Shown here: positions 7,357-29,148 of the stretch, in pieces
How positions within the stretch are numbered: position 1 is the first letter of the stretch
Layout of the letters: every line of letters starts with the position of its first letter
Origin: Providencia alcalifaciens
Lineage (GTDB): Bacteria; Pseudomonadota; Gammaproteobacteria; Enterobacterales; Enterobacteriaceae
Assembly: GCF_020271745.1 (NCBI RefSeq)
Contig: NZ_CP084296.1
Location: forward strand, 3,038,001-3,102,000
Length of the DNA stretch: 64,000 bases
Direction: 5' to 3'
Made by a program: the position numbers and the translations under genes
Notes under the pieces: generated by a model
Database searches by the model: none
The model's input: only the letters and a program-made list of their open reading frames with translations
What the model was told of the DNA's origin: nothing

Positions 7357-8994
7357 ATGAAAACAGAGTTTTCACAGATCCCATTTAAAAAAGGGAATAT
7401 TTTTTCATTCTCTGGAAGAGTCTTTCTTCTATTGTTACTGGCTTCAGTATTATTGACGTTTGGTTTAGGAAAATATTTTACGGATACCACCGAAAACCGC
7501 ATGATGGCGAACATTCGCGTGCTCGCCATGAGCCAAGCCAAAATGATCGCTTCATTGGATGGCATCGTCAGTACTGTAAAAGATAAAGATATTCCTAAGT
7601 TAAAAGTTATTGCCGATAAGCTCAATCAAGATTCCAGTTATGACTATGTCGTTATTGGCGATGAACATTCTGTTCGTTTATATCATCCGAATAGCGAAAA
7701 GATTGGCTACCCAATGCAATGGAATAAACCGGGGGCGCTAGAAAATGGTGAAAGCTATTTTATTAAAGGCGAGGGCTCCATGGGGAATGCGGTACGTGCA
7801 AAAACGCCTATCTTTGATGAAAACGGCAAAGTCATTGGGGTTGTTTCTATCGGTTATTTCACCACCAAAATAGATACCTCGTTAGCTGAGGTATTTGTGC
7901 AAACGTCAGCAACATTTTTAGGGGTGTTGGTGATTTTGCTATTTCTATCTTGGGCATTTGCCCGCTTAATTCAACGGCAAATGCTTGGCATGGAACCTGA
8001 AGAAATAACCCAATTGGTTTTGGTGCAAAAAGGGATTTTTGATGCGGTGTTTGAAGGAATTATTGCCGTCGACCGTTATGGGAAAATTATCAATATCAAC
8101 CATAACGCCAGAAAAATGTTAGCGCTGAGTGAGTCAGCAAAACAGTTAATCGGTAAACCAATTTCTGATTACGTTTCTCCCGTAGGTTTTTTTACGAAAG
8201 AAATCACGAAAAACCATCATGATATAGTTTGCGAATTCAATGGGTTGAATGTGATAGCCAGCCGAGTTGCTATTATGGATGGTGAGTTGCTTGCGGGAGC
8301 GGTGATCAGCTTCCGTAGCCAAAATGATATTGAATCCTTAAATGCGCAGCTTTCTCAGGTTCGCCAATATGTGGATAATTTGCGCACATTGCGCCATGAA
8401 CATTTAAATTGGATCTCTACGTTAAGCGGCTTGTTGCAAATGAAAGAGTATGACCAAGCCTTAGCGTTAATTAAGGGTGAGTCGGAATCTCGGCAACAAT
8501 TAATAGATTCATTGCGTGAACAATTTGCAGATAAACAAGTGGCAGGGTTGTTATTTGGTAAATATCACCGTGCGAGAGAATTGGGATTGCAGCTTATTTT
8601 TGTGCCGGGTTGCCAACTCCGTGAATTACCTTGCTCATTAAATAGCACGGAATTATGTGCTGTATTAGGAAATTTATTAGATAATGCCTTCGAGGCCAGT
8701 TTAAAGAACGAAGCGGGTAATAAGCAGGTAGAATTGTATATCTCAGATGAAAATAATGAGATTGTGATTGAAGTTGCTGATCAAGGATGTGGTTTTCCTC
8801 TTGAGCTGCAAGATAAATGGTTTGAACGCGGAACAACAACAAAAACGGATGCTGTCGATGGGCATGGCATAGGGCTATTTTTGGTGGCCTCCTATGTTAA
8901 TCGATGTAATGGGGCGGTGATCATTGAAGATAATCAACCGTATGGTACTGTATTCTCTATTTTTATACCGAAAGTGTTGAATAGGCATTCTTAG
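7357..8994 (+). CDS. citA: Sensor histidine kinase CitA (3' end replaced by the element)
   Basis: A 545-residue citrate sensor kinase. Segments in order: membrane helix about 16-36, periplasmic PAS-type citrate domain about 40-178 (FDENGKVIGVVSIGYF), second helix about 180-200, cytoplasmic PAS about 215-325, dimerisation helix with the phospho-His in LRHEHLNWIS (near 347), and an ATPase domain with NLLDNAFEA, DQGCGFP and GHGIGLFLV. Its last residues (after FIPKV) and stop codon are supplied by the inserted element. The rebuilt uninserted gene would end FIPKVKTQNG and overlap citB. The catalytic part is intact, so the protein is probably functional. Confidence 0.92.
   Translation: MKTEFSQIPFKKGNIFSFSGRVFLLLLLASVLLTFGLGKYFTDTTENRMMANIRVLAMSQAKMIASLDGIVSTVKDKDIPKLKVIADKLNQDSSYDYVVIGDEHSVRLYHPNSEKIGYPMQWNKPGALENGESYFIKGEGSMGNAVRAKTPIFDENGKVIGVVSIGYFTTKIDTSLAEVFVQTSATFLGVLVILLFLSWAFARLIQRQMLGMEPEEITQLVLVQKGIFDAVFEGIIAVDRYGKIININHNARKMLALSESAKQLIGKPISDYVSPVGFFTKEITKNHHDIVCEFNGLNVIASRVAIMDGELLAGAVISFRSQNDIESLNAQLSQVRQYVDNLRTLRHEHLNWISTLSGLLQMKEYDQALALIKGESESRQQLIDSLREQFADKQVAGLLFGKYHRARELGLQLIFVPGCQLRELPCSLNSTELCAVLGNLLDNAFEASLKNEAGNKQVELYISDENNEIVIEVADQGCGFPLELQDKWFERGTTTKTDAVDGHGIGLFLVASYVNRCNGAVIIEDNQPYGTVFSIFIPKVLNRHS
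8962..8976 (+). repeat. attL core repeat
   Basis: TTTATACCGAAAGTG within the last codons of citA, identical to 28443-28457. The bases differ immediately outside on both sides (T before here, A before the right copy), so the identity block is exactly 15 bases. It encodes the end of FIPKV in citA. Confidence 0.85.
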
Positions 8995-9086: not shown

Positions 9087-9114
9087 TTTTGCTTGTACCT
9101 GAGCTTGTACCTAA
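9087..9114 (+). repeat. Left 28-bp arm repeat, probable integrase arm site
   Basis: A 28-base sequence identical to 28358-28385 in the same orientation. It contains GCTTGTACCT twice, separated by GA. It sits about 110 bases inside the left core. Paired short direct repeats inside each end are the usual layout of arm-type sites bound by the N-terminal domain of P4-family integrases; that role is inferred. Confidence 0.7.
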
Positions 9115-9200
9115 AAACGACTAAAAAACATACAGTGTTTTAAGTTGTAGAAATTAATAGCTTTTTATAAAAGTTATCGATTGATTGGAAATTGCACAAA

Positions 9201-10460
9201 ATGCCAAACTTAAACGATAGACAAATTAAGGCTTGGATAAATTCTAATGAACGATTCGAAGGTAAAGCTGACGGAAACGGACTTTATCTTAGATATTCAA
9301 AGAATGATAAAAATCCAAGCTGGAGATTTAGATATAGTTTCAATAAAAAAGCCCGAATAGTCTCTATAGGGACATACCCCAATATCACCCTAATGAAAGC
9401 GCGTGAAATTGCTAGAGAGTTATCAGCAAAGGTTATTTTAGGTGTTGATGTTGCTGGAGATATAAAGCGACAAAAAGCCGAGGCGTTAGAGAGAATACAG
9501 CGCGAAGATAAAGCGGTTAAAGTGTTTGGGCTGATTGATGAGTTTTACGAGCGACAAATAAAGCCAAAAAGAAAAAAACATGAGGAATCTAAAAAGCTGA
9601 TAGATAAAAATATCACGGCTGTTATTGGTTCAATGAAAATTGAGGATGTGAAGCCAAAAGATGTTGATCTATTAATAAAGTCCATCGTGGATAGAGGCTC
9701 ACCATTTACCGCTGATGAATCGCTACGTTGGTTAAAGCGTATTTTTGATTATGCAGTTCGTAGACAGATGATAGATAGCAATCCAGCCTCGGCCTTTGGT
9801 ATTTCTGATGCTGGCGGAATGGAAAGTAAACGCGAACGATGGTTAACCCGTGATGAGCTGACATTATTCCTTTCAACGCTGAATAGTTCGACATTGCCAG
9901 AATCTAACAAAATAGCATTTAAAATAATTCTAGCTGTTGGCTTGCGTAAGATGGAATTATGCGAGGCTAAATGGTGCGAGATTGATTTAGATAATGCGGT
10001 ATGGCACTTCCCATCAGAGAGAAGCAAAACTGGTGACGCTATAGATATCCCTTTGAGTAAGCCTGTTATAGAGTGGTTTAATCAATTAAAGGTAATGGCT
10101 TGCGGTAGTAAATATGTATTACCTGCCAGAAGAACAGGCACAGGAAAAAATAAAACGATAAATAAGACAACGTTAAATAAGAACCTTGAAAGTATTCTTT
10201 CATCGTTGCCTGAGTCGTTTATTCAGTTCAGCATCCATGACCTACGAAGGACAATGCGAACTCATCTATCAGCATTAGGTGTTGAGCCACAGATAGCTGA
10301 AAGGTGCTTAAATCACAGGGTAAAAGGTATTGAAGGGGTGTATAACCGCCATGATTACTTTGATGAACGAAAAGCCGCATTATCACAATGGGCTGATTTG
10401 CTTACAGCATTAGAAAGCGGTTCTGACTATAATGTTGTACCAATGAGTAAGAAAGCATAA
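9201..10460 (+). CDS. int: P4-type tyrosine integrase
   Basis: A 419-residue site-specific recombinase. The N-terminal DUF4102-type arm-binding domain is visible (MPNLNDRQIKAW, then GLYLRYSK and VSIGTYPNITLMKAREIA). The C-terminal catalytic domain keeps the first Arg in GLRKMELCEAKW (near residue 249), the His-x-x-Arg of IHDLRRTMRTHL (near 346) and the nucleophilic Tyr of GVYNRHDY (near 380). An in-frame TTG at 9192 is possible, but the ATG at 9201 matches family N termini. Its place about 225 bases inside the left repeat, reading inward, fits the element's own integrase. Confidence 0.95.
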   Translation: MPNLNDRQIKAWINSNERFEGKADGNGLYLRYSKNDKNPSWRFRYSFNKKARIVSIGTYPNITLMKAREIARELSAKVILGVDVAGDIKRQKAEALERIQREDKAVKVFGLIDEFYERQIKPKRKKHEESKKLIDKNITAVIGSMKIEDVKPKDVDLLIKSIVDRGSPFTADESLRWLKRIFDYAVRRQMIDSNPASAFGISDAGGMESKRERWLTRDELTLFLSTLNSSTLPESNKIAFKIILAVGLRKMELCEAKWCEIDLDNAVWHFPSERSKTGDAIDIPLSKPVIEWFNQLKVMACGSKYVLPARRTGTGKNKTINKTTLNKNLESILSSLPESFIQFSIHDLRRTMRTHLSALGVEPQIAERCLNHRVKGIEGVYNRHDYFDERKAALSQWADLLTALESGSDYNVVPMSKKA

Positions 10461-11642: not shown

Positions 11643-11888
11643 ATGGAAAAGAAATCACCTAAGCGCAAGCCTCGCGCTAAAATCAGTACACCATACCCTA
11701 TGGACGGTTACGCCCGTCTACGTCATACAGCCGACTTTCTAGGCATTTCTGATGCTACCCGTTATCGCTGGGAGCGTGACGGTAAATTACCTAAGTCATT
11801 TGAGATTGAGAAAGGCTTTTTTGTCTATGATGCGAAAGAGATTCGCGCATGGGTTGAAGCTAAGAAATCACAAAGCGGGGTAGCATAA
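11643..11888 (+). CDS. AlpA-family excisionase/regulator
   Basis: An 81-residue basic DNA-binding protein. After a Lys/Arg-rich start comes a MerR/AlpA-type winged helix-turn-helix (YARLRHTADFLGISDATRYRWERDGKLP, then a short wing and a DAKEIRAWVEAKK helix). In P4 and enterobacterial satellites such proteins (AlpA, Vis) act as excisionases and activators of the late or replication genes. Its stop overlaps the next ATG by one base, so it heads a small operon with the following winged-helix and Rha genes. The 11614-11642 hairpin probably controls it. Confidence 0.85.
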   Translation: MEKKSPKRKPRAKISTPYPMDGYARLRHTADFLGISDATRYRWERDGKLPKSFEIEKGFFVYDAKEIRAWVEAKKSQSGVA

Positions 11889-12283
11889 TGGAAAAGAAAA
11901 ACCACCCGCTACAGGTGGCTTCTCAGGATAACGCGACAGCATCTATTCTATCAAAGAACCCACCGAAAAAACACCGTGCCCGTTTATATATGTTAGGTAC
12001 AGGCATTAATGGATTTACAGAGAATGAAATATTAATTCATTGCCGCTTATCGTCAGCAAGAAATTACGCCTCGGAGTTAGAGCGCAAGTTGGATATTACG
12101 CTGGATCGCATTGATGAGCCTAATCCTGATGGTATCGGGTCACACTACCGTTACCGCTTTAAGACGGCTCAGGACGCGCAGAAGGTTATCAATTTAATTA
12201 ATGAACGCGCTGAACAGGGTAATTACCAAACACTGGATAAAGCACACGTAAATAATATTTTAAGCCTCTACCCGACAAAATAA
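11888..12283 (+). CDS. Unknown small protein with winged-helix-like region
   Basis: A 131-residue protein of unknown function. Residues about 30-100 (YMLGTGINGFTENEILIHC to GIGSHYRYRF) look like a winged helix: helices with a turn, then a two-strand wing. The start overlaps the alpA stop (TAATG). Similar proteins often follow AlpA-like genes in satellites, which suggests a regulatory role; this is inferred from context only. Confidence 0.7.
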   Translation: MEKKNHPLQVASQDNATASILSKNPPKKHRARLYMLGTGINGFTENEILIHCRLSSARNYASELERKLDITLDRIDEPNPDGIGSHYRYRFKTAQDAQKVINLINERAEQGNYQTLDKAHVNNILSLYPTK

Positions 12284-12295: not shown

Positions 12296-12982
12296 ATGAA
12301 ACTAAAAAATAACAGCTTAAATGCTGGTGGATTCGCTCACCCTAAATTCAGCGACGAGCCTATTTTAATTCAACACAGAACTGAGCCGAGAATAGATAGC
12401 CGCCTGTTTGCTAAACGCATCGGAATTAAACATAAGAACCTTTTTGAATTAGTAAAAAAGAATGCAAAGAATTTACGTCAATTTGGCACGCTTCCGTTTC
12501 AAACGGAGACGTGCTCACATTCAACGGGTGCGAGTATTAATAAATACGCTCTACTCAATGAAAACCAATTTGATTTTATGTGCCGTATTGTTCGTGGTCG
12601 TAATCATGAACAGATGACGCAATTCAAGCTAGATGTAACCAAAGCATTCAGTAAGAAACGCGCCGCTGAACCTATCCGCCGCGAATATCTGCCTCATTAC
12701 CATGAGTCACGCGACGCACTCAGAGACTTAGGCGCAGAGAAATATCATTACATCAACCTAGCCCGTACAGAGAACCGATTAACAGGCTTACTCACTGGCG
12801 AACGTGCCAGCGCAGACGAGCAACAATTAGGTTTATTAGTCTGTATGCAAAAAATCGAACAGGCAGCATTTCAGGACGCGATTGATTCGGGGTTATCAGC
12901 TACTCAGGCATTGCGAGAGGTTAGCAAACGCATTGAGCAGTTCGCTAGTTTAATGAGTCCTACTGTGCGGATTGGTGGCTAA
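12296..12982 (+). CDS. Phage regulatory protein, Rha family
   Basis: A 228-residue Rha-type phage regulator. The N-terminal DNA-binding part is seen in IDSRLFAKRIGIKHKNLFELVKKN and YALLNENQFDFMCRIVRGR, with conserved phenylalanines and the QFKLDVTKAF helix. The C-terminal half is a helical extension. Rha proteins interfere with helper or host phage development when no IHF-dependent control is available, and are common antirepressor-like genes. It lies 13 bases after the preceding gene, in the alpA operon. Confidence 0.8.
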   Translation: MKLKNNSLNAGGFAHPKFSDEPILIQHRTEPRIDSRLFAKRIGIKHKNLFELVKKNAKNLRQFGTLPFQTETCSHSTGASINKYALLNENQFDFMCRIVRGRNHEQMTQFKLDVTKAFSKKRAAEPIRREYLPHYHESRDALRDLGAEKYHYINLARTENRLTGLLTGERASADEQQLGLLVCMQKIEQAAFQDAIDSGLSATQALREVSKRIEQFASLMSPTVRIGG

Positions 12983-14796: not shown

Positions 14797-15002
14797 AAAC
14801 AATCAAATTAAAAGTTGGTCACTTATCTACCTTGGAAGAAGTCGAGCATATCAACGAGGGGCTCCAAGCGTTGTTAATCCCACTGTTAACGGCTGTAGAG
14901 AATGAGGCTGATACAGATACACATTTTCTACTAAGAGCAGTTAATCGCCTTGTACATGCTCAAGGGAAAGAAATTACTCGGTTAGCGGAGGTGATGAAAT
15001 GA
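14793..15002 (+). CDS. Small unknown operon protein, 69 residues
   Basis: Starts MKTIKLKVGHLSTLEEVEHI at the ATG at 14793, which overlaps the preceding stop (ATGA) behind GAGGAGG. Helical and acidic. Its last codons overlap the ORF6N-domain gene start by four bases. Confidence 0.7.
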   Translation: MKTIKLKVGHLSTLEEVEHINEGLQALLIPLLTAVENEADTDTHFLLRAVNRLVHAQGKEITRLAEVMK

Positions 15003-15583
15003 GACAAGTCACTATCAATGCCACCAGCCTAAGCCCATTCATGTATCAAGGTAAGCGAGTAGTTACCTTTGCCATGATTGACGAGGTACATCAACGCCCG
15101 AAAGGTACAGCAAAGCGCACATTCAACACGCATAAAAAGCACTTCATTGATGGGGTAGATTACTTTTTGCTCACTAAGTACGTAATACGTACCGAGTTAC
15201 CCGAACTAGAGATAGGCGGCAAGGCAAAAGAGTTAATGCTTATCACTGAGTCAGGTTATTTGATGGTTGCCAAGCCATTTACCGATGATTTGTCGTGGCA
15301 GGTTCAACGCTCAATGGTTAACAGCTACTTTCGTTTGTCTGAGTTTCCCGAAATTAAACATATTCAAATCCCCACGCTGGCGGAGCTTGAAGCCATGCCA
15401 ATTGGTGAGGCTCAGAACTTGATTAGCAGTTTAGAAGCTGATTCTTATCAAGGTCACGGTAGGCGCGGTAGTTATGCCATGAACCTACGTCGCAAGGAGA
15501 AGAAAGCACTAAAACCAATGGTAATGGCTATTGAACAAGCCTCACAGCTACACATTCAGGATATGGGGGATTATCGCTCATGA
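14999..15583 (+). CDS. ORF6N-domain phage antirepressor-like protein
   Basis: A 194-residue protein. Residues about 12-95 match the ORF6N/KilA-N-type DNA-binding domain (YQGKRVVTFAMIDEVHQRP, FNTHKKHFIDGVDYFLLTK, LMLITESGYLMVAKPF). The C-terminal part is helical and Lys-rich. Such proteins are phage antirepressors or regulators. It overlaps neighbours on both sides by four bases. Together with Rha it gives the element two antirepressor-type proteins. Confidence 0.8.
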   Translation: MRQVTINATSLSPFMYQGKRVVTFAMIDEVHQRPKGTAKRTFNTHKKHFIDGVDYFLLTKYVIRTELPELEIGGKAKELMLITESGYLMVAKPFTDDLSWQVQRSMVNSYFRLSEFPEIKHIQIPTLAELEAMPIGEAQNLISSLEADSYQGHGRRGSYAMNLRRKEKKALKPMVMAIEQASQLHIQDMGDYRS

Positions 15584-16752: not shown

Positions 16753-16764
16753 GGAGCCAATGAC

Positions 16765-19885: not shown

Positions 19886-20129
19886 TGGGATAAGTGGGAT
19901 AACGGGATAAGAACTAAAAAAGATAACAGTATTATTAAGTTAGGTTACTTCTATTTATCCCATGTTATCCCAAGTTATCCCAAATGAAATGATAATTAAT
20001 TGTTATAAATGTTAATTAAAAATCAAAATTATCCCAAAAATAAAAAGTCTGGGATAAGAAAATAGGGTGTTTGGGATAAGTTAACTTTATGATATTAAAT
20101 AGAAATAATCAACTTATCCCGTTATCCCA
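19886..20129. repeat. Replication origin with 11 TGGGATAA iterons
   Basis: Iterons TGGGATAA or the complement TTATCCCA, two with one end base changed. Direct: 19886, 19895, 19903. Complement: 19955, 19965, 19975, 20029. Direct: 20050, 20072. Complement: 20114, 20122. The 19955-19982 triplet is spaced exactly 10 bases (one helical turn). A very AT-rich stretch (19984-20028) lies in the middle and could be the unwinding region. It directly follows the primase gene. No ORF of note lies in this 319-base gap. Confidence 0.8.
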
Positions 20130-20166
20130 AAGAAAAATCATTTTTCGCCTATAGAGAGATATTTAA

Positions 20167-20481
20167 ATGAGTAACAAATTGACCATTAAAAGCCTGACAC
20201 CTGCTATCTCTGGTTGGTGGGTTAAAATCACCGATAATGACGCAGATAAAACTGAATGGTACTCGCCTGTAGCAGCATGGGCGTTATGTGATGTGCGCTA
20301 TGAAAAAGAGTCGAAAGTATATACTCAAATCTTGCCTGTATTGACAGGGGAGTCTGGTATGGAGCCATTACACCCAGATGAGGCTTATAGTGAAATGCTT
20401 TATTTGCCTGATGATAGATTTATTCATATGGGTGAGCCTTGCGTTTACTCATGGGCAATTGTTAAGGAGGGCGGGGTATAA
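20167..20481 (+). CDS. Unknown 104-residue protein downstream of the origin
   Basis: Acidic protein with many Trp and Tyr (ISGWWVKITDNDADKTEWYS, WALCDVRYEKES) and probably a beta-rich fold. It is the first gene after the origin and overlaps the ProQ-like start by one base (TAATG). Not recognised. Confidence 0.7.
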   Translation: MSNKLTIKSLTPAISGWWVKITDNDADKTEWYSPVAAWALCDVRYEKESKVYTQILPVLTGESGMEPLHPDEAYSEMLYLPDDRFIHMGEPCVYSWAIVKEGGV

Positions 20482-20918
20482 TGAGCACTCAAACACTGAC
20501 ACTAAAACGCAAAAATCCACCAGCGACGAACACACCCAAAAGCATACAAGGTAAAACGCCACAGGAAGCCTCACAGCAACCGAAGAAGAAAAATAAGGCA
20601 GATGTTCACGCGAAGAAGAAACAGCACCGCATAGACCGTATAGCGAAGCACTGGACGCTATTCAGTGAACCAGAAGCCAAGCCGCTAATGATTGGCATCA
20701 AGGAAGCTATGATTGCTGAGGTTAAAGATAAAGGGCTAGATATCCCAGAGAGCCACATTAAACAGGGATTACGGTCATACATCAGCCGCAAGGCGTATTT
20801 GAAAGCTCTTACTCTGGGCGGCAATCGGTTTGATATGCACGGGCAACCTAACGGAGAAATCACACCAGAACAGCAAGCCATAGCAGAACAAACGCTGGCG
20901 GAATGGAACGGGAATTAA
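20481..20918 (+). CDS. ProQ/FinO-domain RNA chaperone
   Basis: A 145-residue protein. Residues 1-48 are basic and flexible (QQPKKKNKADVHAKKKQHRI). From about 55 to 140 is a ProQ/FinO domain: HWTLFSEPEAKPLMIGIKEA, then GLRSYISRKAYLKALTLGG, RFDMHGQPNGEITPEQQAIA. ProQ/FinO proteins bind structured RNAs and promote sense-antisense pairing, for example in plasmid copy control. It is coupled to the gene before it and followed by a strong terminator. On this element it could act on the structured leader RNA near 13897. Confidence 0.88.
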   Translation: MSTQTLTLKRKNPPATNTPKSIQGKTPQEASQQPKKKNKADVHAKKKQHRIDRIAKHWTLFSEPEAKPLMIGIKEAMIAEVKDKGLDIPESHIKQGLRSYISRKAYLKALTLGGNRFDMHGQPNGEITPEQQAIAEQTLAEWNGN

Positions 20919-20958
20919 TACCCCAATTCAAAATCAATCATCACATACAAGACGAAAG

Positions 20959-20981
20959 CCGACTCAAATAGTCGGTTTTTT
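20959..20981 (+). terminator. Terminator after the ProQ-like gene
   Basis: Stem CCGACT (20959-20964), AGTCGG (20970-20975), then six T. A classical Rho-independent terminator 40 bases past the ProQ stop. It closes the origin-proximal operon before the tape-measure module. Confidence 0.85.
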
Positions 20982-21119
20982 GTTGTCTTATTTCCATGGT
21001 ATCGAGCGTTAGTAGAAGATATTTCTATTTATGCGTCTAATCATAGCAATAATTTGTTGTTTATTTTTTAATCTGAATTAAAATTATAGTGTATATAAAA
21101 ACAGGGTGGATAAATAACC

Positions 21120-21293
21120 ATGAGCAAACAAAAAAGAACGTTCAAAGCCGTATCAATTGATAGCGAGATTTTGGAACGCATAGAGAAGTTTCGCCAACAA
21201 CGCGCGGAAAAGGACTATTTAATTAATGAAGCTCCGATGACGCAACTAATTAGAGGGCTACTCAATGAGGCTTTACGCCGTGAGGGGGTATAA
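21120..21293 (+). CDS. Ribbon-helix-helix-like protein, 57 residues, coupled to tape measure
   Basis: MSKQKRTFKAVSIDSEILER begins a short basic protein. The first strand (FKAVSIDSEI), helix (LERIEKFRQQR) and last helix (PMTQLIRGLLNEALRR) fit an Arc/MetJ-like repressor fold. Its stop is immediately followed by the tape-measure ATG (TAAATG), so the two are translated as a pair. It may be an autoregulator that limits expression of the structural module. Confidence 0.65.
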   Translation: MSKQKRTFKAVSIDSEILERIEKFRQQRAEKDYLINEAPMTQLIRGLLNEALRREGV

Positions 21294-23672
21294 ATGGCAA
21301 CGTTAATAGATACATTGCTAGTATCGCTAAAGCTGGATTCGGCAAGTTTTGCCGCCGATGCGAAGAAAGCGACGAATGAGAATGATCGGTTATCGAAATC
21401 TATCGATTCATTAAATGACGTACTCGGCGACGTTAACGAAACGCTCAAGGGTACAAAAGAGCAGCAGAAAAAAGCGAAAGAGCAAACAGACGAGTTCGCC
21501 AAGTCAGTCAATAACGGAATTAAAGCCCTCGCCACACTATTTAGCACAATCTTAGTTTCATCAGGGTTGCAAAAACTCATTGACGATACCGCCAAAGCTA
21601 ACGATCAGCTTAATTTTCTAAGTAAAAACCTCGGCGTAAATGCGACTACCGTTAAACGCTGGCAAGGTGCGGCAGAAATGGCAGGAGGCAGCGCAGAGGG
21701 CATGGCTGCCAGTATGGGCGGATTAAGCAAATCATTGTGGGATTTGGTGACGGTGGGTGATACCTCTATCCTGCCCTATTTTAACGCGCTGAACGTGGGG
21801 GTGATGAAAAATAGCGGAGAGTTGAGAAACCTCGATGATATCTTGCTGGATGTTGCCGATAGCCTGTCTCAGATGACCAGACCTCAAGCCTATAACTTCG
21901 CTAAGAATATGGGCTTTGACGAAGGCACGATAAATATGTTACTGCAGGGGCGGAAAGAGGTAGAGGAATATCTAGCCTTACAAAAAGACATCGTGGTTTC
22001 GTCTGAACAAGAGCTAGAGATTAGCCGGCAACTGAATAAGCAAAATGCGCTAGTAGGTCAGCAATGGGAGGGGTTAAAGACGCTACTGGCTAATTATGTT
22101 ATCCCTTATGCGCTGAAATTCTCTGAGCTAGTGTCTGGCTTCCTGAATTACCTGAATAAGAACCGAGATACCGCCGTCATGGTGTTTAAAGCTATGGGGG
22201 CGGTGATAGGCTTGACGCTGATCCCGTTAGCCCTGAAAGCTGGAGCCGCATTTATGGGGATGTTTGCCCCGTTATTCGGTGGCGTTGGCTTGGTTCTCTT
22301 ACTCGCGGCAGCAATAGCCGCCTTATATGATGACTATAAAACGTGGAAAGAGGGCGGAAAGTCCTTATTTGATTGGGAAGAGTGGGATGGCTCAATCACG
22401 TTTATTCTTAAAAAGCTGGACGAGTTGGAAACATGGTTTAAAGACACCACTATCGGCAAATGGTTTACTGACCAAAACGGCGATATTGAGGGTTGGAAAT
22501 TAGCGTTAACAGGATTTGCTACTTGGTTCGGCGTAAAATGGGTTGCAAAAATATTAGGGGGGTTCGCTAGTTTATCTCTAGGTGCTACTCAATGGGCTTT
22601 GAGTCTTACTCGGGCGTTTGCGTCAATCACAGCATCAGCAACGAAGTTTTTAGCCAAAAACCCGTGGCTACTCATGCTTTATTCAGAGCAAACAGCTACC
22701 ACAGAACAAGAAGATAATGCCACTCGAAATTCTAATAGGGATAATTTCTACCGCAATCATGCGATGACTAACTTGAATAAGTCAGGTAAGCCATACACTG
22801 AAATTGACGTTACTAATGAAATACTAAGAATGACGATCTCAGGTGAAATGCCAGAGCCAACAGAGGACGACTTAAACCAAAATACGACAATTGGCAGAAA
22901 GCAACAGTTATTAAAAAACGGTGTAATTGGTGGGAAAGAAGATACAGCGAATAGCAATGATGACAGTGTTTCATCAAAGCATGGAGAAAGAGGGTTAAGG
23001 TATAATAGTCCGCTAAATTTGGCTTATGCAAAACAGAATGGAGCATCAAATGACGGGGAAGGATGGGCTAAGTTTGATCGCCCTTATGATGGAATAAGAG
23101 CCAGTTCTAGACAGCTAATGATGTACTACAATGGAACATCAGCAGCCGCGGAGTATAAAAAGTTACAGACTGTCTGGGATATTATCCATAAATGGGCTCC
23201 AAAAGGTCATGGCAAGAATGACCCAGCGTCATATTCAAAGATCGTAGCAGGTAGGATGGGGGTTAATGTTGATTCTGTTTTAGATTTGAATAATCCGGCA
23301 GTCATGTTCTCATTGATTAAAGAAATGTCTAAAGTAGAGAATAATAATAAATATCCGTATTCTGAAGCCTTATCTATGGCAGCCATTCAAGGTACTGGCG
23401 ACCCTATGCAGAATGCTATTAGTAATATTCAATCATTTAACAAACAGATATCAACACCTTTTGCAGCAGGTGTGAATGGTTTGACTAAGGGATTTTTAGA
23501 CCAATCGAACGCGCTTAAATCACAAGCCCAAAGAATTACGAATAACAAAACAGATGTTAATGTGGGAGGTATAACCGTCCACACTACCGCTACTACATTA
23601 TCAGGAGTAAATGAGGCGGCAGCCGAGGAATCGACAAGACGAGTTTATCAACTCGTTCCGTCACTTAGCTAA
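21294..23672 (+). CDS. Phage tail tape-measure protein with C-terminal muralytic-like domain
   Basis: 792 residues. N terminus MATLIDTLLVSLKLDSASFA, then a coiled coil (about 25-75), the QLNFLSKNLGVNATTVKRWQGAAE region typical of tail tape measures, and hydrophobic helices around 300-345 (VIGLTLIPLALKAGAAF, GVGLVLLLAAAIAALYDD). Residues about 565-700 resemble the muralytic domain found on virion proteins (GLRYNSPLNL, PYDGIRASSRQLMMYYN, VWDIIHKWAPKGHGKNDP). Tape measures set tail length and leave the tail on DNA entry. No other tail gene lies in the element, so it must act with a helper's tail proteins or be a relic; the intact frame favours use. GGGGG ribosome site. Confidence 0.85.
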   Translation: MATLIDTLLVSLKLDSASFAADAKKATNENDRLSKSIDSLNDVLGDVNETLKGTKEQQKKAKEQTDEFAKSVNNGIKALATLFSTILVSSGLQKLIDDTAKANDQLNFLSKNLGVNATTVKRWQGAAEMAGGSAEGMAASMGGLSKSLWDLVTVGDTSILPYFNALNVGVMKNSGELRNLDDILLDVADSLSQMTRPQAYNFAKNMGFDEGTINMLLQGRKEVEEYLALQKDIVVSSEQELEISRQLNKQNALVGQQWEGLKTLLANYVIPYALKFSELVSGFLNYLNKNRDTAVMVFKAMGAVIGLTLIPLALKAGAAFMGMFAPLFGGVGLVLLLAAAIAALYDDYKTWKEGGKSLFDWEEWDGSITFILKKLDELETWFKDTTIGKWFTDQNGDIEGWKLALTGFATWFGVKWVAKILGGFASLSLGATQWALSLTRAFASITASATKFLAKNPWLLMLYSEQTATTEQEDNATRNSNRDNFYRNHAMTNLNKSGKPYTEIDVTNEILRMTISGEMPEPTEDDLNQNTTIGRKQQLLKNGVIGGKEDTANSNDDSVSSKHGERGLRYNSPLNLAYAKQNGASNDGEGWAKFDRPYDGIRASSRQLMMYYNGTSAAAEYKKLQTVWDIIHKWAPKGHGKNDPASYSKIVAGRMGVNVDSVLDLNNPAVMFSLIKEMSKVENNNKYPYSEALSMAAIQGTGDPMQNAISNIQSFNKQISTPFAAGVNGLTKGFLDQSNALKSQAQRITNNKTDVNVGGITVHTTATTLSGVNEAAAEESTRRVYQLVPSLS

Positions 23673-23734
23673 GAGTTTCTGTAATTAACTCAAATCAGAC
23701 CGTGTAATCACCTAAACAAAATATAGAGGTTGGT

Positions 23735-24187
23735 ATGTTAAAAAAGATAATTGCTATGCTGGTTTTCTTGCCTTTTTTGGCACTTGCAGGAAACTCCACA
23801 TCCACACAGGCTAATACGGAAGATAAAATAGTCATTAATGATGGTGTATTTGATTGTGACTTCTTTCCTATAGATAAAAGCACTGGTCTAGCTAATACAG
23901 ATAGAATTGATAAGGAAGGTAGCGCAATAATTCATGTGAAGAACATAGATGGAGGCAAATTGCTTGTCACCGCAACTTTGTCTGACACTGTTTTAATATC
24001 TATACCTCAACTACAGTTTTATCAAGGTAATGGTAAATCCGCTTCATATGGATATAGTTCCGATGATGAGAAATACCAAATAATATCAACACCTCAAACT
24101 GGATTGATATTGGTAATTAACGCCAAAAGTAACAACATCGAAGCCAGTACTTTAATTAGGAATTGCTCCGCTAAAAATACCAAGTAG
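23735..24187 (+). CDS. Small secreted protein of unknown function
   Basis: A 150-residue protein with a clear Sec signal (MLKKIIAMLVFLPFLALAG, probable cut after ALA at about 17-18). The mature part is mainly beta, with two cysteines (one near residue 40, one near the C terminus) that could form a disulfide in the periplasm. It sits between the tape measure and small terminase genes, 60 bases after the first, with a GAGGTTGGT ribosome site. An envelope role such as blocking entry of other phages is possible but not shown. Confidence 0.7.
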   Translation: MLKKIIAMLVFLPFLALAGNSTSTQANTEDKIVINDGVFDCDFFPIDKSTGLANTDRIDKEGSAIIHVKNIDGGKLLVTATLSDTVLISIPQLQFYQGNGKSASYGYSSDDEKYQIISTPQTGLILVINAKSNNIEASTLIRNCSAKNTK

Positions 24188-24192
24188 CTAAC

Positions 24193-24208
24193 AAGCCCTT
24201 CGGGGCTT
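24193..24208 (+). other. UUCG-type hairpin after the secreted protein gene
   Basis: AAGCCC, TTCG, GGGCTT just past the stop codon. Very stable tetraloop hairpin but no T run follows, so it may protect the mRNA 3' end rather than terminate. Confidence 0.5.
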
Positions 24209-24283
24209 AACAATATCGTTAAAACTACCAGTGGAAATAAAAAGCAATAATTAGATTATGTAATAGTGCTAACAAGGTGAAAC

Positions 24284-24475
24284 ATGCAGCAAAGCATTAA
24301 GAAAAAACGCAATCGCTACTTTAACGGTACGCCGACAACGCGCCTAATCGTAACGTGTGAGCAATCCGTTATTGACGCAGTAGACGAGCATATATTGATA
24401 AACTATATCAGGGCTGGCAATCGTGCAGAGTTCGTGAGACAGGCGATAATTGAGAAGTTACAGCGTGAACTTTGA
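24284..24475 (+). CDS. Ribbon-helix-helix-like protein, 63 residues
   Basis: Basic N terminus (MQQSIKKKRNRYFNGTPTTR) followed by strand RLIVTCEQ and helices AVDEHILINYI and NRAEFVRQAIIEKLQREL, a good fit to ribbon-helix-helix DNA-binding proteins. It lies directly before the repeat cluster at 24489-24543 and the small terminase gene, so it may regulate that segment. Confidence 0.65.
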   Translation: MQQSIKKKRNRYFNGTPTTRLIVTCEQSVIDAVDEHILINYIRAGNRAEFVRQAIIEKLQREL

Positions 24476-24616
24476 TGATTAATGGAGAAGTACGCGCACG
24501 CGCGAGAAAATCCAGACTTTCGAGACCAGTACGCGCGCGCGAGGGAATGATGATTTTCGGGCACGTTAGCGGTTATTTATTCGTATCGTAAAAAGTAACT
24601 TTGATGATTAATGGAG
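24468..24616 (+). repeat. Repeat cluster before terS, candidate packaging site
   Basis: A 20-base direct repeat (24468-24487 and 24597-24616) encloses a GC-rich pair, AGTACGCGC..GCGCGAG, at 24489-24506 and 24528-24543. Between these is a block (24507-24535) that recurs at 26749-26777 with two mismatches in 29 bases. GC-rich repeats next to a small terminase gene are a typical setting for a cos or pac site. The TerS start is 55 bases further on. Confidence 0.5.
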
Positions 24617-24671
24617 TCCATAAAAAAGGGCTGAATTAGCGACAAATATAGACATTAAATGAGGGGGCTAG

Positions 24672-25064
24672 ATGCTAACAACTAAACAAGAAAATTTCTG
24701 CCTTGCCTATATTGAGACGGGCAACGCAAGCGAAGCCTATAGAACGGCATACGACACGGCAAAAATGAAGCCTGAATCAATCAACAGGAAAGCTAAAGAG
24801 CTATTGGACAACGGCAAGATTACGGCAAGGGTGAACGAGCTACAGCAAGATATTAGAACAAAGCACGATATTACCGTTATGATGTTATTGGACGAGCTGG
24901 AAGCGGCTAGATTGAAAGCCCTGAATGCTGACACGCCTCAAGCATCGGCAGCAGTAGCGGCAACGATGGGGAAAGCCAGATTGACAGGGCTGGATAAGGT
25001 TCTGGTTGATTTAAGTGCTAATGTGAAAGTAGAGACGCGCTCAATCAAGGATATTTTTGATTAA
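24672..25064 (+). CDS. Small terminase subunit (TerS)
   Basis: A 130-residue protein of the Terminase_2-type small subunit family. The N-terminal helix-turn-helix region LTTKQENFCLAYIETGNASE, AYRTAYDTAKMKPESINRKA and ELLDNGKITARVNELQQD is diagnostic, followed by a helical oligomerisation part. It recognises the packaging site and partners with a large subunit. The element has no large terminase, so TerS should redirect a helper's motor, as in other satellites. GAGGGGG ribosome site. No linked portal or capsid gene. Confidence 0.85.
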   Translation: MLTTKQENFCLAYIETGNASEAYRTAYDTAKMKPESINRKAKELLDNGKITARVNELQQDIRTKHDITVMMLLDELEAARLKALNADTPQASAAVAATMGKARLTGLDKVLVDLSANVKVETRSIKDIFD

Positions 25065-25363
25065 CTCCTAAGAAATCCTAAGATTATTACTGGTTGGATG
25101 TTAACAATTGTAAACGTTCAGATGCTAACATTTGCTAACGTATTTCAGTTAATACCGACTCGAAGCCTCATACATAAATCTTAACAAATCTTAAGGTTTC
25201 TTAAGGGTAAATGCTGCCATGTTGATAACATTACAGATAATAAGGATTGGTAAGGTGGTTGCATGGCTTAAGGTGTGGTGAGGTTATTATTGACAGAGTG
25301 AAAAATAGTCATACGATACCTTTCACTCCTTTATAATTAGCACTACATTCGGGAATTAGACGA
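25065..25363. other. Non-coding stretch after terS with inverted repeats
   Basis: A sequence at 25067-25085 (CCTAAGAAATCC start) has an imperfect inverted copy at 25187-25206. There are several GTTAAC and GCTAAC words between them. Near 25289 TTGACA with TACGAT 16 bases on could be a promoter reading right. GAGTGAAA and TTTCACTC form an inverted repeat at 25297-25329. No gene seen. Confidence 0.4.
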
Positions 25364-25732
25364 TTATTTGCTTAAAATTGTAATGCCAATTAATGCGATG
25401 AATAAAAACAGACCGAGAAAAAACCATCGGGCTGTTTTTTTTGTAATTGAAGTAATAATCTTAACTACTTCATCACAAAAATAAAAAACAAACCAATCCA
25501 TATCAAGTTCAAGATCGGGATGAATCCTCTCAGCCTCAACAAATTTAACTCTGGCAACGGCTTTCATAACATCTCTGCTTGAATTCAAATCTAATTGGTC
25601 ACTTAAAAAAGCATCCCAAGCAGCTTCTCTAGCAATCCTGCTGTTTAGATCGCTAATACCTTCAATTGCTACTTGTCGTATTCTTTGAGCTTTTAATACT
25701 CGCTCAAAACCATATTTATTAATATTAATCAT
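25364..25732 (-). CDS. Unknown protein with C-terminal membrane anchor
   Basis: 122 residues on the minus strand, so it reads against the terminase gene. Residues 1-95 are soluble and helical (KAQRIRQVAIEGISDLNSRI, AREAAWDAFLSDQLDL). Residues about 102-120 form one membrane helix (WFFLGLFLFIALIGITI). No family recognised. A cytoplasmic sensor or effector tethered to the membrane is compatible with an exclusion or defence role, but this is a guess from architecture. Separate from the RHH gene 25815-26231 upstream by 82 bases, same strand. Confidence 0.6.
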   Translation of the reverse strand: MININKYGFERVLKAQRIRQVAIEGISDLNSRIAREAAWDAFLSDQLDLNSSRDVMKAVARVKFVEAERIHPDLELDMDWFVFYFCDEVVKIITSITKKTARWFFLGLFLFIALIGITILSK

Positions 25733-25814
25733 TATTCACCTTAAATGAGTTCTCATAATCCCTTTATGTTAAACGGGCGAGTTGGTTTACTAAAACCGCC
25801 CGTTGATACCTTAT

Positions 25815-26231
25815 TTAATTTAGCTTCCCAGCAATATCCTTGTGACGCTTCCACGCTGAATAAATATCCTTATCCCATGCTTTACCGCCTTTCGTTTGAT
25901 AGCCAGCCTCGTTAATCCGTTCAGCGATAATGCGCCCGTTATCTATCCCCTCTGATAGCACCAAATTAACCACAGAAACGACAGCAGACTCATTATAGGT
26001 ATAAGGTGGGATATCTGCCTTACCAGCAATCAAAGATGCTACAGACGATTCTAGGCGTTCCACCAGCGACAGCATACGAGCGTCTGGATTACTGTCTGGG
26101 CGGTTTAACTTCTCTTTGATAGCCGAGACTATCCACGCTGTTTTATCAGTGGCAGAGTTCGATACAGCATCATTAAACAGTGCTTGGAGTTCAGCAGGTA
26201 GACGAAAGGCAATAAGATTAGATTTGCTCAT
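25815..26231 (-). CDS. Ribbon-helix-helix regulator with C-terminal recombinase-like helix domain
   Basis: 138 residues. Residues 1-45 look like a ribbon-helix-helix domain (LIAFRLPAELQALFNDAVSN, KTAWIVSAIKEKL). Residues about 80-135 resemble the small helical domain with RIIAERINEAGYQTKGGKAWD, seen in recombinase-type DNA-binding proteins. It is probably transcribed from the 26232-26300 region, where the dyad GTATAACGCTGTTATAC is a natural autoregulatory site. Likely repressor of the minus-strand pair. Confidence 0.65.
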   Translation of the reverse strand: MSKSNLIAFRLPAELQALFNDAVSNSATDKTAWIVSAIKEKLNRPDSNPDARMLSLVERLESSVASLIAGKADIPPYTYNESAVVSVVNLVLSEGIDNGRIIAERINEAGYQTKGGKAWDKDIYSAWKRHKDIAGKLN

Positions 26232-26275
26232 GATAATAGTCCGTTATTAACTCAATGAGTGCTTATTATATCAGC

Positions 26276-26292
26276 GTATAACGCTGTTATAC
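26276..26292. promoter_or_regulatory. Perfect dyad GTATAACGCTGTTATAC
   Basis: A 17-base perfect inverted repeat (7+3+7) 45 bases upstream of the minus-strand regulator gene. It is the most likely operator for that gene. A GTATAAC half-site recurs at 26336-26342. Confidence 0.55.
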
Positions 26293-26426
26293 AGATAAGA
26301 AAATATAAAATTGCTGGTGGATTTGATGAGTAATTGTATAACTTAATATAACAAAGTCAGGGTAACTTACTGTAAAACAAGCAAAGCGTATTATTGCGCC
26401 TTGTAACTAACTGAACACATGGCAAA

Positions 26427-27040: not shown

Positions 27041-27691
27041 TGCGATGGTAATCGCAATGGTTAAATGTTAAGCGAAGCACTAAAAAGTGCGACGGTATAC
27101 AGGTATACAAGGAGACATGAGGCTCTGAAATTGGAGGCTCGTCACTGGCTGGCAATGTTTTAACAATGTTCATGAAATAAAAGTAACCACAGGACTAATT
27201 TGTCCTCTGGGAATTAATCCCACAATGCAAATAAGCACTCTGAATAAAAATCAATAAGTTACCGCAAAATTTAAAAATTGATGTTACCCTCACGAATGGG
27301 GGAAAGATAGGTAGCGACAACAACGACTATGGCAAGATTACGGCAAGGTATTAGCCATAAGGTTTATATAAGGTTTCAGGCGGTCAATTTGACCGTTAGT
27401 AATAAAAACAATGTATTGCCACCTCTTAACAATGGTCACTGAAACGATAACCAATGCCGCTATTCTGGTTTTGTGACAGAATTAAACATTATCAATCAGT
27501 TATATTTTGATTCCGTCGATTTGCCGGAATTAAGCATAATCAATAGCCTATAGATACATACGGGATTATCCCGTATCATCATGGATAAATTAACGTTTAG
27601 ATCTCATTAGAAATTGGAACTATTATCTTATTTTCCTGAATCTCACCAGCATTTTATTTTAATCAGTAGCTTATATTACGATGGTATTAAG
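27041..27691. other. Non-coding stretch before the SSB-like gene
   Basis: 650 bases without a convincing gene. The direct pair GGTATACAGGTATACA lies around 27094-27110. A perfect 19-base palindrome ATACGGGATTATCCCGTAT is at 27558-27576. No terminator recognised. Confidence 0.4.
27558..27576. promoter_or_regulatory. Palindrome containing origin iteron words
   Basis: ATACGGGATTATCCCGTAT is palindromic around the central base and contains TTATCCCG, the same word as an iteron in the origin (20114-20121). It may be a second binding site of the primase/initiator, like the crr site of P4, or an operator for the SSB-like gene 116 bases downstream. Confidence 0.45.
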
Positions 27692-27979
27692 ATGAATAAA
27701 CCAGATATGAGAAAAGCAAAATCAATTAGGATCACCACATCAGGAACGGTAATAAAAGCCCCTGAGCGAGTTAAAACAGCCACAGGTAAAGTTATGGCTA
27801 CGATGACTATTCAGGCTGAGAGTGACAAGCGTAGCCCGTACCCATTAAAGATAGTGGCATTCGATATTAACGCGCTGGAGCTAATGACCTGCCAGAAAGG
27901 AAACAAAGTCACGGCTACAGGTCGCTATGAATGGTTTAATGGTTATCAGCTAACGGGGGCGCAGATAGTTACCTGTTAG
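27692..27979 (+). CDS. OB-fold, single-stranded-DNA-binding-like protein
   Basis: A 95-residue protein from the ATG at 27692 (MNKPDMRKAKSIRITTSGTV); in-frame starts further up to 27614 are possible. The pattern GTVIKAPERVKTATGKVMAT, PLKIVAFDINALELM, QKGNKVTATGRYEWFNGYQL fits the five-strand OB fold of SSB or PriB-like proteins. It would protect single strands made by the element's helicase. It sits near the right end and is the last clear gene of the element. Confidence 0.6.
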   Translation: MNKPDMRKAKSIRITTSGTVIKAPERVKTATGKVMATMTIQAESDKRSPYPLKIVAFDINALELMTCQKGNKVTATGRYEWFNGYQLTGAQIVTC

Positions 27980-28357: not shown

Positions 28358-28385
28358 TTTTGCTTGTACCTGAGCTTGTACCTAA
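28358..28385 (+). repeat. Right 28-bp arm repeat, probable integrase arm site
   Basis: Identical to 9087-9114, same orientation, with GCTTGTACCT twice separated by GA. It is 57 bases from the right core repeat. Confidence 0.7.
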
Positions 28386-28467: not shown

Positions 28468-29148
28468 ATGGCTAAGATAAAAATCCTCATTGTCGAAGAT
28501 GAACTGCTCCTTGCGGAGATGCACGCGGAGTACATTAAAGCTTATCCTGCTTGTGATAAAGTCTGGCTTGCGGGCAATCTTGCAGAAGCAAGAAAAATGA
28601 TTGAGTACATGAAGCCTGACTTGATTTTGTTGGATAACTATTTACCTGATGGCAAAGGGATTGATTTAGTTCATGAACTGCTTCAGGAACGCAATGGTGC
28701 GGATATTGTGTTCACCACCGCCGCCAGTGATATGGAAACCGTCTCTGAGGCGATTCGCCTCGGCGTATTTGATTATCTGGTTAAACCGATAGCGTATGAG
28801 CGTTTAGGGCAAACGTTAGATCGCTATATTCAGCGTAAAGCGGTTTTGCAGGGGGCCAATAAAACCAATCAAAGCCAGATTGATGACATGTTTAATACCT
28901 ATGCTCGCGGTGAGAGTAAGGAAGAGCTACCGACGGGGATTGATGCTATTACGCTTGATAAAGTGCTCGCGTTATTTGCAGTACCCGATGCGGAATATAC
29001 GGCAGAGACAATTGCAGAAACCATAAAATTAAGTCGCACCACCGCCCGCCGTTATTTAGAGTATTGTTTAGCCCAACGTAAGATTGAAGCGGAAATTGAA
29101 TACGGCAAAGTCGGGCGCCCCCAGCGGATATATCGAGGAAGTCATTAG
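28468..29148 (+). CDS. citB: Response regulator CitB, separated from citA
   Basis: A 226-residue regulator of citrate fermentation. The receiver domain keeps the acidic pair (VEDE), the phosphorylation Asp56 (LILLDNYLPDG), and the Thr and Lys switch residues (VFTTAAS, LVKPI). The C-terminal helix-turn-helix is AETIAETIKLSRTTARRYLEYC, as in CitB/DcuR. The ancestral start overlapped citA. The insertion has moved it 19.5 kb from its kinase gene, so it now needs a promoter in or near the element's right end. Weak ribosome site (GAAG). Confidence 0.93.
   Translation: MAKIKILIVEDELLLAEMHAEYIKAYPACDKVWLAGNLAEARKMIEYMKPDLILLDNYLPDGKGIDLVHELLQERNGADIVFTTAASDMETVSEAIRLGVFDYLVKPIAYERLGQTLDRYIQRKAVLQGANKTNQSQIDDMFNTYARGESKEELPTGIDAITLDKVLALFAVPDAEYTAETIAETIKLSRTTARRYLEYCLAQRKIEAEIEYGKVGRPQRIYRGSH

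What the first reader, a model, noticed from the sequence alone, without database searches (positions are those of the whole stretch)
21294..25064. Phage satellite that carries its own tail tape measure together with TerS
Seen: a complete 792-residue tape-measure protein and a 130-residue small terminase subunit, but no large terminase, portal, capsid, tail tube or baseplate genes. Known: many satellites redirect a helper's packaging with their own TerS. Inference: this element also substitutes the helper's tape measure, so particles carrying it may have a tail of satellite-defined length (about 120 nm by the usual 0.15 nm per residue), possibly with a different DNA-entry enzyme through the C-terminal muralytic domain. 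This may be a tail-remodelling satellite class.
Basis: partly seen in the sequence, partly recalled or inferred. Interest (0 to 1): 0.9.

Follow-up and report, generated by a model that had tools for sequence, protein, structure and literature searches.

The report
Satellites carrying a swappable DNA-entry module
A small parasite of bacterial viruses carries its own copy of the tail-core protein that helps virus DNA into a cell, and relatives carry unrelated tail-core or DNA-injection proteins at the same spot, which suggests that such parasites exchange the part of the borrowed particle that breaks into cells.

Summary
Confirmed: window 9087-28385 is a 19.3-kb integrated element between perfect 28-bp repeats, holding a complete 792-aa tape-measure protein (TMP) and a 130-aa TerS; no other structural gene was recognised. 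Its backbone matches EcCIMP1, an experimentally mobilised E. coli PICI.

The tail-length idea is weak: satellite TMPs are 792, 797 and 800 aa, 14 related prophage TMPs 769-839.

Relatives fill the slot downstream of the primase with unrelated TMPs, P22-type ejection proteins, or a contractile-phage baseplate hub and spike; one (L295) has TMP, hub and spike together. Of 46 assessable viral-database elements found by a backbone gene, 38 had TMPs, 6 ejection proteins, 2 neither. Of 23 assessable genome elements: 5 TMP (1 remnant), 4 ejection, 4 hub/spike (1 decayed), 10 no recognised module. EcCIMP1 carries the ejection set, and its proven helper Kapi1 is P22-like.

Best reading: an exchangeable DNA-entry module, possibly evading entry-stage exclusion. 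Satellite TMPs are already known (Vibrio PLEs, Nature 2026); this slot-wide exchange was not found in my searches. Expression, virion incorporation and the window's helper are unshown.

The parts
9087..9114 (.). att-like repeat, left end (28 bp, perfect)
9192..10460 (+). tyrosine integrase (422 aa)
   Evidence: PF00589, PF13356, PF22022
11643..11888 (+). AlpA-type regulator
   Evidence: PF05930 over cut-off
11888..12283 (+). 131-aa backbone marker of the satellite family (orf131), function unknown
   Evidence: 55% identical in EcCIMP1; 28 of 392 family genomes
12296..12982 (+). Rha-family regulator
   Evidence: PF09669
12972..14192 (+). repressor-like protein (406 aa)
   Evidence: phrog_6928, 1743 and 6196, transcriptional repressor, C-terminal part only
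14999..15583 (+). ORF6N protein
   Evidence: PF10543
17106..19847 (+). TOPRIM/DUF927 primase-helicase (913 aa)
   Evidence: 45.5% over 916 alignment columns to EcCIMP1 primase
20481..20918 (+). ProQ/FinO-family RNA-binding protein
   Evidence: PF04352
21120..21293 (+). 57-aa ribbon-helix-helix-like ORF ending directly before the TMP start; similar ORFs sit just upstream of the cassette in several relatives
   Evidence: the RHH label is read from sequence by eye, Pfam gave no supporting match
21294..23672 (+). tape-measure protein (792 aa)
22950..23528 (+). endolysin-like C-terminal domain of the TMP (residues 553-745)
23735..24187 (+). 150-aa protein with a signal-peptide-like N-terminus, beside the TMP
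   Evidence: weak relatives (27%) downstream of prophage TMPs in L031 and L037
24284..24475 (+). 63-aa RHH-like protein next to TerS
   Evidence: RHH_1 below Pfam cut-off
24672..25064 (+). terminase small subunit (130 aa)
25815..26231 (-). 138-aa backbone marker downstream of the slot (m138)
27614..27979 (+). SSB-like protein
   Evidence: PF00436 below cut-off
28358..28385 (.). att-like repeat, right end
7357..8994 (+). flanking chromosomal sensor kinase, separated by the element from the response regulator
28468..29148 (+). flanking DpiA-like response regulator

Best explanation
The element is a PICI-type phage satellite. On helper infection or induction it would excise, replicate with its own primase, use its own TerS to direct the helper's large terminase to satellite DNA, and load its own TMP into helper tails in place of the helper's. 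The TMP is one form of an exchangeable DNA-entry module kept in one slot of this satellite family. The forms are a TMP, in some types with a tail assembly chaperone, for long-tailed helpers; gp14/7/20/16-type ejection proteins for P22-like helpers; and a baseplate hub plus spike for contractile helpers. What changes is the part of the particle that crosses the peptidoglycan and inner membrane, so that satellite particles may enter cells in which the helper's own entry proteins are excluded. SHOWN by sequence: the element, genes, slot, module types, purifying selection and mosaicism. SHOWN by others: EcCIMP1 moves with Kapi1, and PLE TMPs enter virions. INFERRED: incorporation, entry function, and the reason for swapping.
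For: 1) Same slot, different modules, in elements found by a backbone gene and not by TMP: 38 TMP, 6 ejection, 2 neither of 46 assessable of 50 UViGs (classed); 5 TMP (1 remnant), 4 ejection, 4 hub/spike (1 decayed), 10 none recognised of 23 assessable of 26 genome loci; 9 of 9 own-genus elements with a close primase carry a TMP. 2) Representatives by PHROGs/Pfam: TMP families phrog_2276, 1107, 1538, 24, 339, 2854, lytic tail protein 2013, and the unlabelled 7694 and 9388 followed by TMP families; ejection phrog_770, 917, 598 and PF16928 P22 injectosome; hub phrog_196/PF22759; spike PF18352/PF18946; chaperones PF08748 and PF10876 in two types. 3) With 43 structural proteins of two contractile prophages (without the L030 TMP) against 99 elements, slot hits were only to TMP, chaperone, hub with its neighbour, spike, and TerS; none to sheath, tube, portal, coat, TerL or fibre. 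L295 has chaperone, TMP, hub and spike together. 4) EcCIMP1 shares orf131, primase and other backbone genes with the window and carries the ejection set; its demonstrated helper Kapi1 is a Lederbergvirus with the same gene block. 5) None of 14 ejection-type satellites matched nine other Kapi1 packaging or virion proteins. 6) ORFs with export-signal-like starts: 47 of 357 near modules, 3 of 239 in the early region. 7) Entry proteins are known exclusion targets: SieA on gp16/gp20, HK97 gp15 and TMP as cited there, SNIPE and TMP.
Against: No expression, virion or transfer data for this element. 10 of 23 assessable genome elements and 5 of 10 E. coli regions viewed have no recognised module, so it is not required. 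One E. coli relative carries capsid and terminase genes there, so the slot accepts other virion genes. The cassette of the L144 type also holds a 122-aa protein matching 'tail completion or Neck1' (phrog_5), and the hub cassette of L342 a 205-aa protein matching a family labelled tail fiber (phrog_817) and a 101-aa 'virion structural protein'. UViGs are biased to TMP carriers because virus callers look for phage genes, and were not dereplicated. In only 23 of the 50 are primase and m138 both in one locus; in the others one end of the slot is set by distance. gp20 and gp16 are the divergent parts between EcCIMP1 and Kapi1, but P22-like phages vary the same way among themselves. EcCIMP1 transduction by Kapi1 is called low by its authors. 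In three of seven UViG records the second TMP match is of another family than the satellite's.
Confidence: 0.58

Rival explanations
1. The satellite TMP sets a satellite-specific tail length.
For: A TMP determines tail length in long-tailed phages (established), and PLE11 and ICP1 virion tail lengths differ significantly (figure legend).
Against: Satellite TMPs are 792, 797 and 800 aa against 769-839 aa in 14 prophage TMPs of the same clade; the slot holds ejection proteins of short-tailed phages in relatives.
Confidence: 0.1
2. The module is an interference device: excess TMP, hub or ejection protein poisons helper assembly and the proteins do not serve satellite particles.
For: Satellites often interfere with helpers, and tail assembly is a known target. 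Some elements carry gp20/gp16-type genes without a match to DUF2824 or gp7 (L320, L359, L362).
Against: PLE TMP deletions cut satellite transduction by 96 to about 99.9%. EcCIMP1 does not alter Kapi1 titres from induced lysogens. TMP with chaperone and full ejection sets look like working assembly units.
Confidence: 0.15
3. The module genes are captured prophage fragments that drift and decay without a role.
For: TMP N-termini interleave with prophage TMPs in a tree. Broken copies exist in G416, L336 and L356, and two of four E. coli ejection sets have a member annotated as incomplete. Many elements lack a module.
Against: dN/dS 0.15 and 0.07 between window and G402 TMPs; one slot reused by unrelated entry genes; chaperones in two types; no sheath, tube, portal or coat hits in the slots.
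Confidence: 0.12
4. The slot is a general virion-gene site and the excess of entry genes reflects which genes fit a small genome, not a common function.
For: Capsid, portal and terminase genes occupy the corresponding place in L363; neck-like and fibre-labelled proteins occur inside some cassettes.
Against: Apart from those, 99 elements gave slot hits only to TMP, chaperone, hub and neighbour, spike and TerS among 43 structural proteins.
Confidence: 0.2

Closest known systems
V. cholerae PLE satellites with their own TMP (Mathur, Boyd et al., Nature 2026, PMC12987554; passages read)
   Same: Satellite-encoded TMP (with TAC, and in PLE11 a baseplate hub protein) goes into chimeric tails and is needed for efficient transduction; the authors also map putative tmp genes in some cf-PICIs.
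   Different: Backbones were not aligned here (unrelated as I recall); the helper is a virulent myophage; the passages I read describe no exchange for ejection proteins and no slot shared by many TMP families.
EcCIMP1 PICI of E. coli MP1 with helper Kapi1 (Pick et al., ISME J 2025, PMC11773190; abstract and passages read)
   Same: Homologous backbone; slot filled with DUF2824, gp7-, gp20- and gp16-like genes and no other structural gene recognised.
   Different: Ejection module instead of TMP and no terminase identified by its authors, who propose a packaging role for these genes.
EcCICFT073 and other Gram-negative PICIs (Fillol-Salom 2018, PMC6092414; passages read)
   Same: int, alpA, primase, optional terS, use of helper packaging.
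   Different: No TMP or ejection gene in the passages read; EcCICFT073 uses cos sites and has no TerS.
Capsid-gene PICI of O157 type (L363; the name cf-PICI for it is mine)
   Same: Related DUF927 primase and the same position for virion genes.
   Different: Carries terminase, portal and capsid genes; the window element carries none of the capsid, portal or TerL.
Satellite AH14b of Pseudomonas ANT_H14 (PMC4936722; passages read)
   Same: A satellite with a tail-related gene: putative tail assembly protein I, 71-74% identical to its helper's.
   Different: No TMP is mentioned for AH14b in the passages read; different genus.
Contractile-tailed prophages of the L030 type (host partly inferred)
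   Same: TMP N-terminus 77-86% identical; TerS 71-77% identical in seven prophage loci L149-L155, three of whose records also carry this TMP type.
   Different: Full structural gene sets.

Membership tests
PICI (Gram-negative) | Integrase and defined att sites | tested here: met
   Integrase; perfect 28-bp repeats, only two in the genome; the same 28-mer (one copy with 1 mismatch) in G397 and G411 next to related integrase or SSB ends
PICI (Gram-negative) | AlpA regulator and primase-replication gene | tested here: met
   PF05930 and DUF927 primase
PICI (Gram-negative) | Homologous backbone to a proven PICI | tested here: met
   EcCIMP1: orf131 55%, orf114 44%, orf198 34%, primase 45.5% over 916 columns
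PICI (Gram-negative) | No full set of structural genes; TerS optional | tested here: met
PICI (Gram-negative) | Phage-dependent excision, replication and transfer | not testable with these tools
   needs experiment
cf-PICI | Own capsid, portal and TerL genes | tested here: not met
   no match to the L363 set
TMP-carrying satellite (PLE kind of function) | Satellite-encoded TMP | tested here: met
TMP-carrying satellite (PLE kind of function) | TMP incorporated into satellite virions and needed for transduction | not testable with these tools
   needs experiment
TMP-carrying satellite (PLE kind of function) | TMP homologous to the PLE TMP | not tested
   no PLE sequence was fetched
P4-like satellite | P4 psu/sid/delta capsid and activation genes | not tested
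   no such gene was named by the Pfam/PHROGs scans of the element, but no P4 record was compared

The most novel reading that the evidence does not exclude
A widespread Enterobacterales satellite family treats the DNA-entry apparatus as an exchangeable cartridge: tape measure plus chaperone, P22-type injectosome, or baseplate hub plus spike, chosen to fit the helper's tail type and changed to bypass exclusion at the inner membrane. Satellites would thus pirate heads and tails but bring their own way into the cell, with neighbouring exported proteins as cognate exclusion factors.
Probability: 0.45. Interest if true: 0.88.

Novelty: new variant of a known kind. Interest (0 to 1): 0.76.

Why it matters
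It would join three satellite observations under one function: TMPs in PLEs, puzzling 'packaging' genes in EcCIMP1, and hub/spike genes in other islands. It makes the question of why satellites replace tail-core parts testable in an existing laboratory pair, EcCIMP1 and Kapi1. It also suggests that prophage exclusion at the inner membrane shapes satellite evolution, and it gives a candidate cause, a lipoprotein-like gene beside the ejection genes, for the unexplained superinfection immunity reported for EcCIMP1.

Tried and rejected
Tail-length control was weighed against TMP lengths and against ejection-type relatives and set low. Own-genome helper: the only other Terminase_2 hit leads to a contractile-tailed prophage (structural genes at G000 about 3.728-3.747 Mb) with a 671-aa TMP of another family; no link could be shown. 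The own genome has no match to the ejection family phrog_770. Second TMPs in the seven UViG records searched with two TMP queries: another family than the satellite's in G773, G774 (with internal stops) and G778, the same family in G775 and G776, none found in G777 and G779, so no rule. A direction rule, virion-facing end conserved and envelope-facing end swapped, fits the window TMP and EcCIMP1/Kapi1 but not the L144 TMP type, whose C-terminal part is the better conserved, so it was dropped. dN/dS against prophage TMPs was mostly uninformative because dS is saturated. L303 found no close E. coli relative. L282 and L285 (Kapi1-type tailspike matches) and L327 were left out of counts because prophage genes adjoin m138, and L319 because the contig is short; L331, L347 and L353 are cut by contig ends. 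The weak TMP matches L003-L026 were not examined for context, except G402, G416, G405, G408 and G286. The exported-protein rule is crude, counts related elements more than once, and its 68 elements include partial ones and L282 and L285.
Full report
Observation. The TMP (21294-23672, 792 aa) and TerS (24672-25064, 130 aa) are real. They lie in an element bounded by a perfect 28-bp direct repeat at 9087-9114 and 28358-28385, the only places in the genome within 3 mismatches. The element separates a sensor kinase from a DpiA-like response regulator. Genes in order include integrase, AlpA, a 131-aa marker (orf131), Rha, a repressor-like protein, ORF6N, DUF927 primase, ProQ/FinO, TMP, an exported-looking 150-aa protein, TerS, a 138-aa marker on the other strand (m138) and an SSB-like protein. 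All 17 predicted genes of 100 aa or more were scanned with Pfam and/or PHROGs; seven smaller genes and antisense ORFs were not. No TerL, portal, capsid, sheath, tube or baseplate gene was recognised.

Host. The window is G000:C1:3038001-3102000 of a 4.2-Mb genome. Its name is not given. The nine named genome loci with TMP relatives are all Xenorhabdus. Providencia is my guess from memory of genome size and G+C.

TMP. It belongs to the phrog_2276/3824 family. Against 50,697 phage records, 332 match and none over 80% of its length in one place. Of the loci L027-L126 (prophage L041-L043 left out), those with a TMP match but no match to the prophage gene set were L027, G402 (L033), G416 (L035, truncated) and G408 (L038, a TMP fragment without satellite genes apart from an integrase match); the other TMP loci had six or more. 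The N-terminal 360 residues are 77-79% identical to prophages L028-L030 and L032, and 86% to L031 over residues 101-360; residues 553-745 are most like prophage L055 (63%) and satellite L027 (60%), apart from G402 and G416. Window and G402 TMPs are 92% and 89% identical in the two end parts but 35% in the middle, with dN/dS 0.149 and 0.068 in the end parts. In a tree of 91 N-terminal regions the three full-length satellite TMPs interleave with prophage TMPs, three changes being forced by well-supported branches. So satellites and prophages have exchanged this gene repeatedly. ORF lengths are 792, 797 and 800 aa in the satellites and 769-839 aa in the 14 prophages of the same clade. The C-terminal domain is homologous to Enc34 endolysin and resembles, weakly (E 2e-3), a podovirus internal virion protein D among predicted structures.

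TerS. Its best prophage relatives, L149-L155 (71-77%), lie with genes of the contractile prophage set, two of them with portal and few others; L159, L161 and L162 (72-74% over 112-116 residues) lie beside none of the marker genes. Three records (UViGs 2905391758, 2899755671, 2871176517) hold both this TerS and this TMP type; a fourth genome (2645728082) holds them on separate contigs. TerS is 100% identical in G402 and G416, and 93% in G407, where no TMP lies in the 20 kb taken. In G402 the RHH-TerS block is 99.4% identical at DNA level while the other blocks are 76-93%. TerS and TMP therefore move separately.

The slot. Relatives were sought by primase, orf131 or m138. Own genus, close primase: 9 of 9 elements carry a TMP: 2 window-like (window, G402), 6 phrog_1107-like (G415, G397a, G401, G399, G398, G405) and 1 phrog_339-like (G397b). 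UViGs found by m138: 50 loci, 4 set aside (L282, L285, L319, L327), leaving 38 TMP, 6 ejection, 2 with no module found (L314, L323). They were not dereplicated, and only 23 of 50 show primase and m138 in one locus. Genomes found by orf131 (28 of 392 genomes, 23 of 154 genera; 30 places, 4 already in hand, 26 fetched): 3 cut by contig ends, leaving 4 TMP, 1 TMP remnant, 4 ejection, 3 hub/spike, 1 decayed hub, 10 without a recognised module; L333, one of the ten, has TerS-like genes. Classes rest on PHROGs/Pfam for representatives and BLAST to these for the rest. Two TMP types had best matches to families without a label (7694, 9388), with TMP families next.

Which virion genes occur. With 43 structural proteins (the L030 prophage set without its TMP, and the own-genome prophage) against 99 elements, slot hits were to TMP and chaperone (L147), to chaperone, hub, its neighbour and spike in L295, which also has a TMP, to hub/spike and neighbour in L342, L346, L348 and L356, and to TerS in L333 and L342; none to sheath, tube, portal, coat, TerL or fibre. 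L295 joins the TMP and hub/spike forms. Outside this test, the L144 cassette has a neck/tail-completion-like protein and the L342 cassette a protein labelled tail fiber. One E. coli relative, L363, has capsid and terminase genes. Of 10 E. coli regions viewed, chosen by me carry ejection genes (two with an incomplete member), 1 capsid genes, 5 neither. At least 80% of the EcCIMP1 primase-to-ejection block is found in 65 of 5,426 E. coli genomes.

The proven pair. EcCIMP1 of E. coli MP1 is mobilised by Kapi1, at a low rate (abstract and passages of PMC11773190). It shares its backbone with the window element. Its slot holds DUF2824, a 225-aa phrog_598 DNA ejection protein, a 439-aa PF16928 P22-injectosome protein and a 906-aa SLT transglycosylase. 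Kapi1 has a homologous block in the same order: 83% over 151, 57% over 206, 26% over 322 and 24% over 531 aligned positions. The gp20-like protein is 23-28.7% identical to the 25 best of 100 matching phage records. None of 14 ejection-type satellites matched nine other Kapi1 packaging or virion proteins. The authors suggested a packaging role; I think DNA entry fits better. The SieA work (passages) indicates that gp16 and gp20 are the exclusion targets and must match each other, while gp7 could be replaced alone. L320, L359 and L362 carry gp20- and gp16-like genes without matches to gp7 or DUF2824. P22-like phages show the same variability, so this pattern alone does not prove a satellite-specific reason.

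Exported neighbours. With a crude signal rule, 47 of 357 ORFs near modules against 3 of 239 in the early region looked exported, and 38 of 68 elements had at least one. Related elements are counted more than once. They could be exclusion factors paired with the module; this is conjecture.

Literature. Satellite TMPs were shown for PLEs; the paper says no other satellites had been reported to encode one, and maps putative tmp genes in some cf-PICIs (passages). Six searches on satellites, PICI, tape measure, ejection protein, superinfection exclusion, injectosome, baseplate hub and tail genes listed 30 of 429, 30 of 86, 6 of 6, 20 of 31, 11 of 11 and 9 of 9 papers. None of the listed titles or abstract openings describes TMP, injectosome and hub/spike as alternatives in one satellite slot. 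The library is open-access PMC only, and I read listings and selected passages.

Verdict. Observation confirmed; satellite reading supported; tail-length reading weak. The wider pattern of interchangeable DNA-entry modules is the more interesting result and is directly testable with EcCIMP1 and Kapi1.

Noticed in passing
G411:C1:128009 (L395) and 1309193 (L393): The kinase-integrase end and the SSB-regulator end of a related element lie 1.18 Mb apart, each with the 28-mer att (one with 1 mismatch): a rearrangement through the satellite, or an assembly error.
   Followed up: partly
L035 (G416) 13127-15280: IS-like transposase genes (by eye) sit where primase, ProQ and the TMP N-terminus are missing; TerS remains 100% identical: a decayed copy.
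   Followed up: partly
L041/L042 (G000:C1 about 3.728-3.747 Mb): A contractile-tailed prophage with TerS, TerL-like, sheath-like, 671-aa TMP, hub and spike genes (mostly named by eye and BLAST) lies in the window's own genome, a possible helper. The L147 satellite carries a related TMP and chaperone, and the hub/spike satellites carry relatives of its hub and spike.
   Followed up: partly
L340 5228-8503 and L344 11915-16096: Single proteins of 1091 and about 1390 aa match both gp20-like (phrog_2534) and gp16-like (phrog_770) families, as if the injectosome were fused into one chain.
   Followed up: no
L295 about 2500-9700: One satellite carries chaperone, TMP, hub and spike relatives together, linking the TMP and hub/spike forms of the module.
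   Followed up: partly
L348 7369-7713, L342 11506-11856, L346 16285-16638: An exported protein of 114-117 aa (phrog_3443 for L348) lies between hub and spike genes; a similar-looking one lies beside the TMP in L027 and G416.
   Followed up: partly
window 12972-14192: The 406-aa repressor-like protein has repeated NQS-containing stretches (DNA repeats 13253-13283 and 13325-13355).
   Followed up: no
window 52090-52549: tRNA cluster Gly-Cys-Leu-Leu with two tRNA-Leu(taa) genes, the second about 0.1 kb after the first; possibly an integration scar.
   Followed up: no
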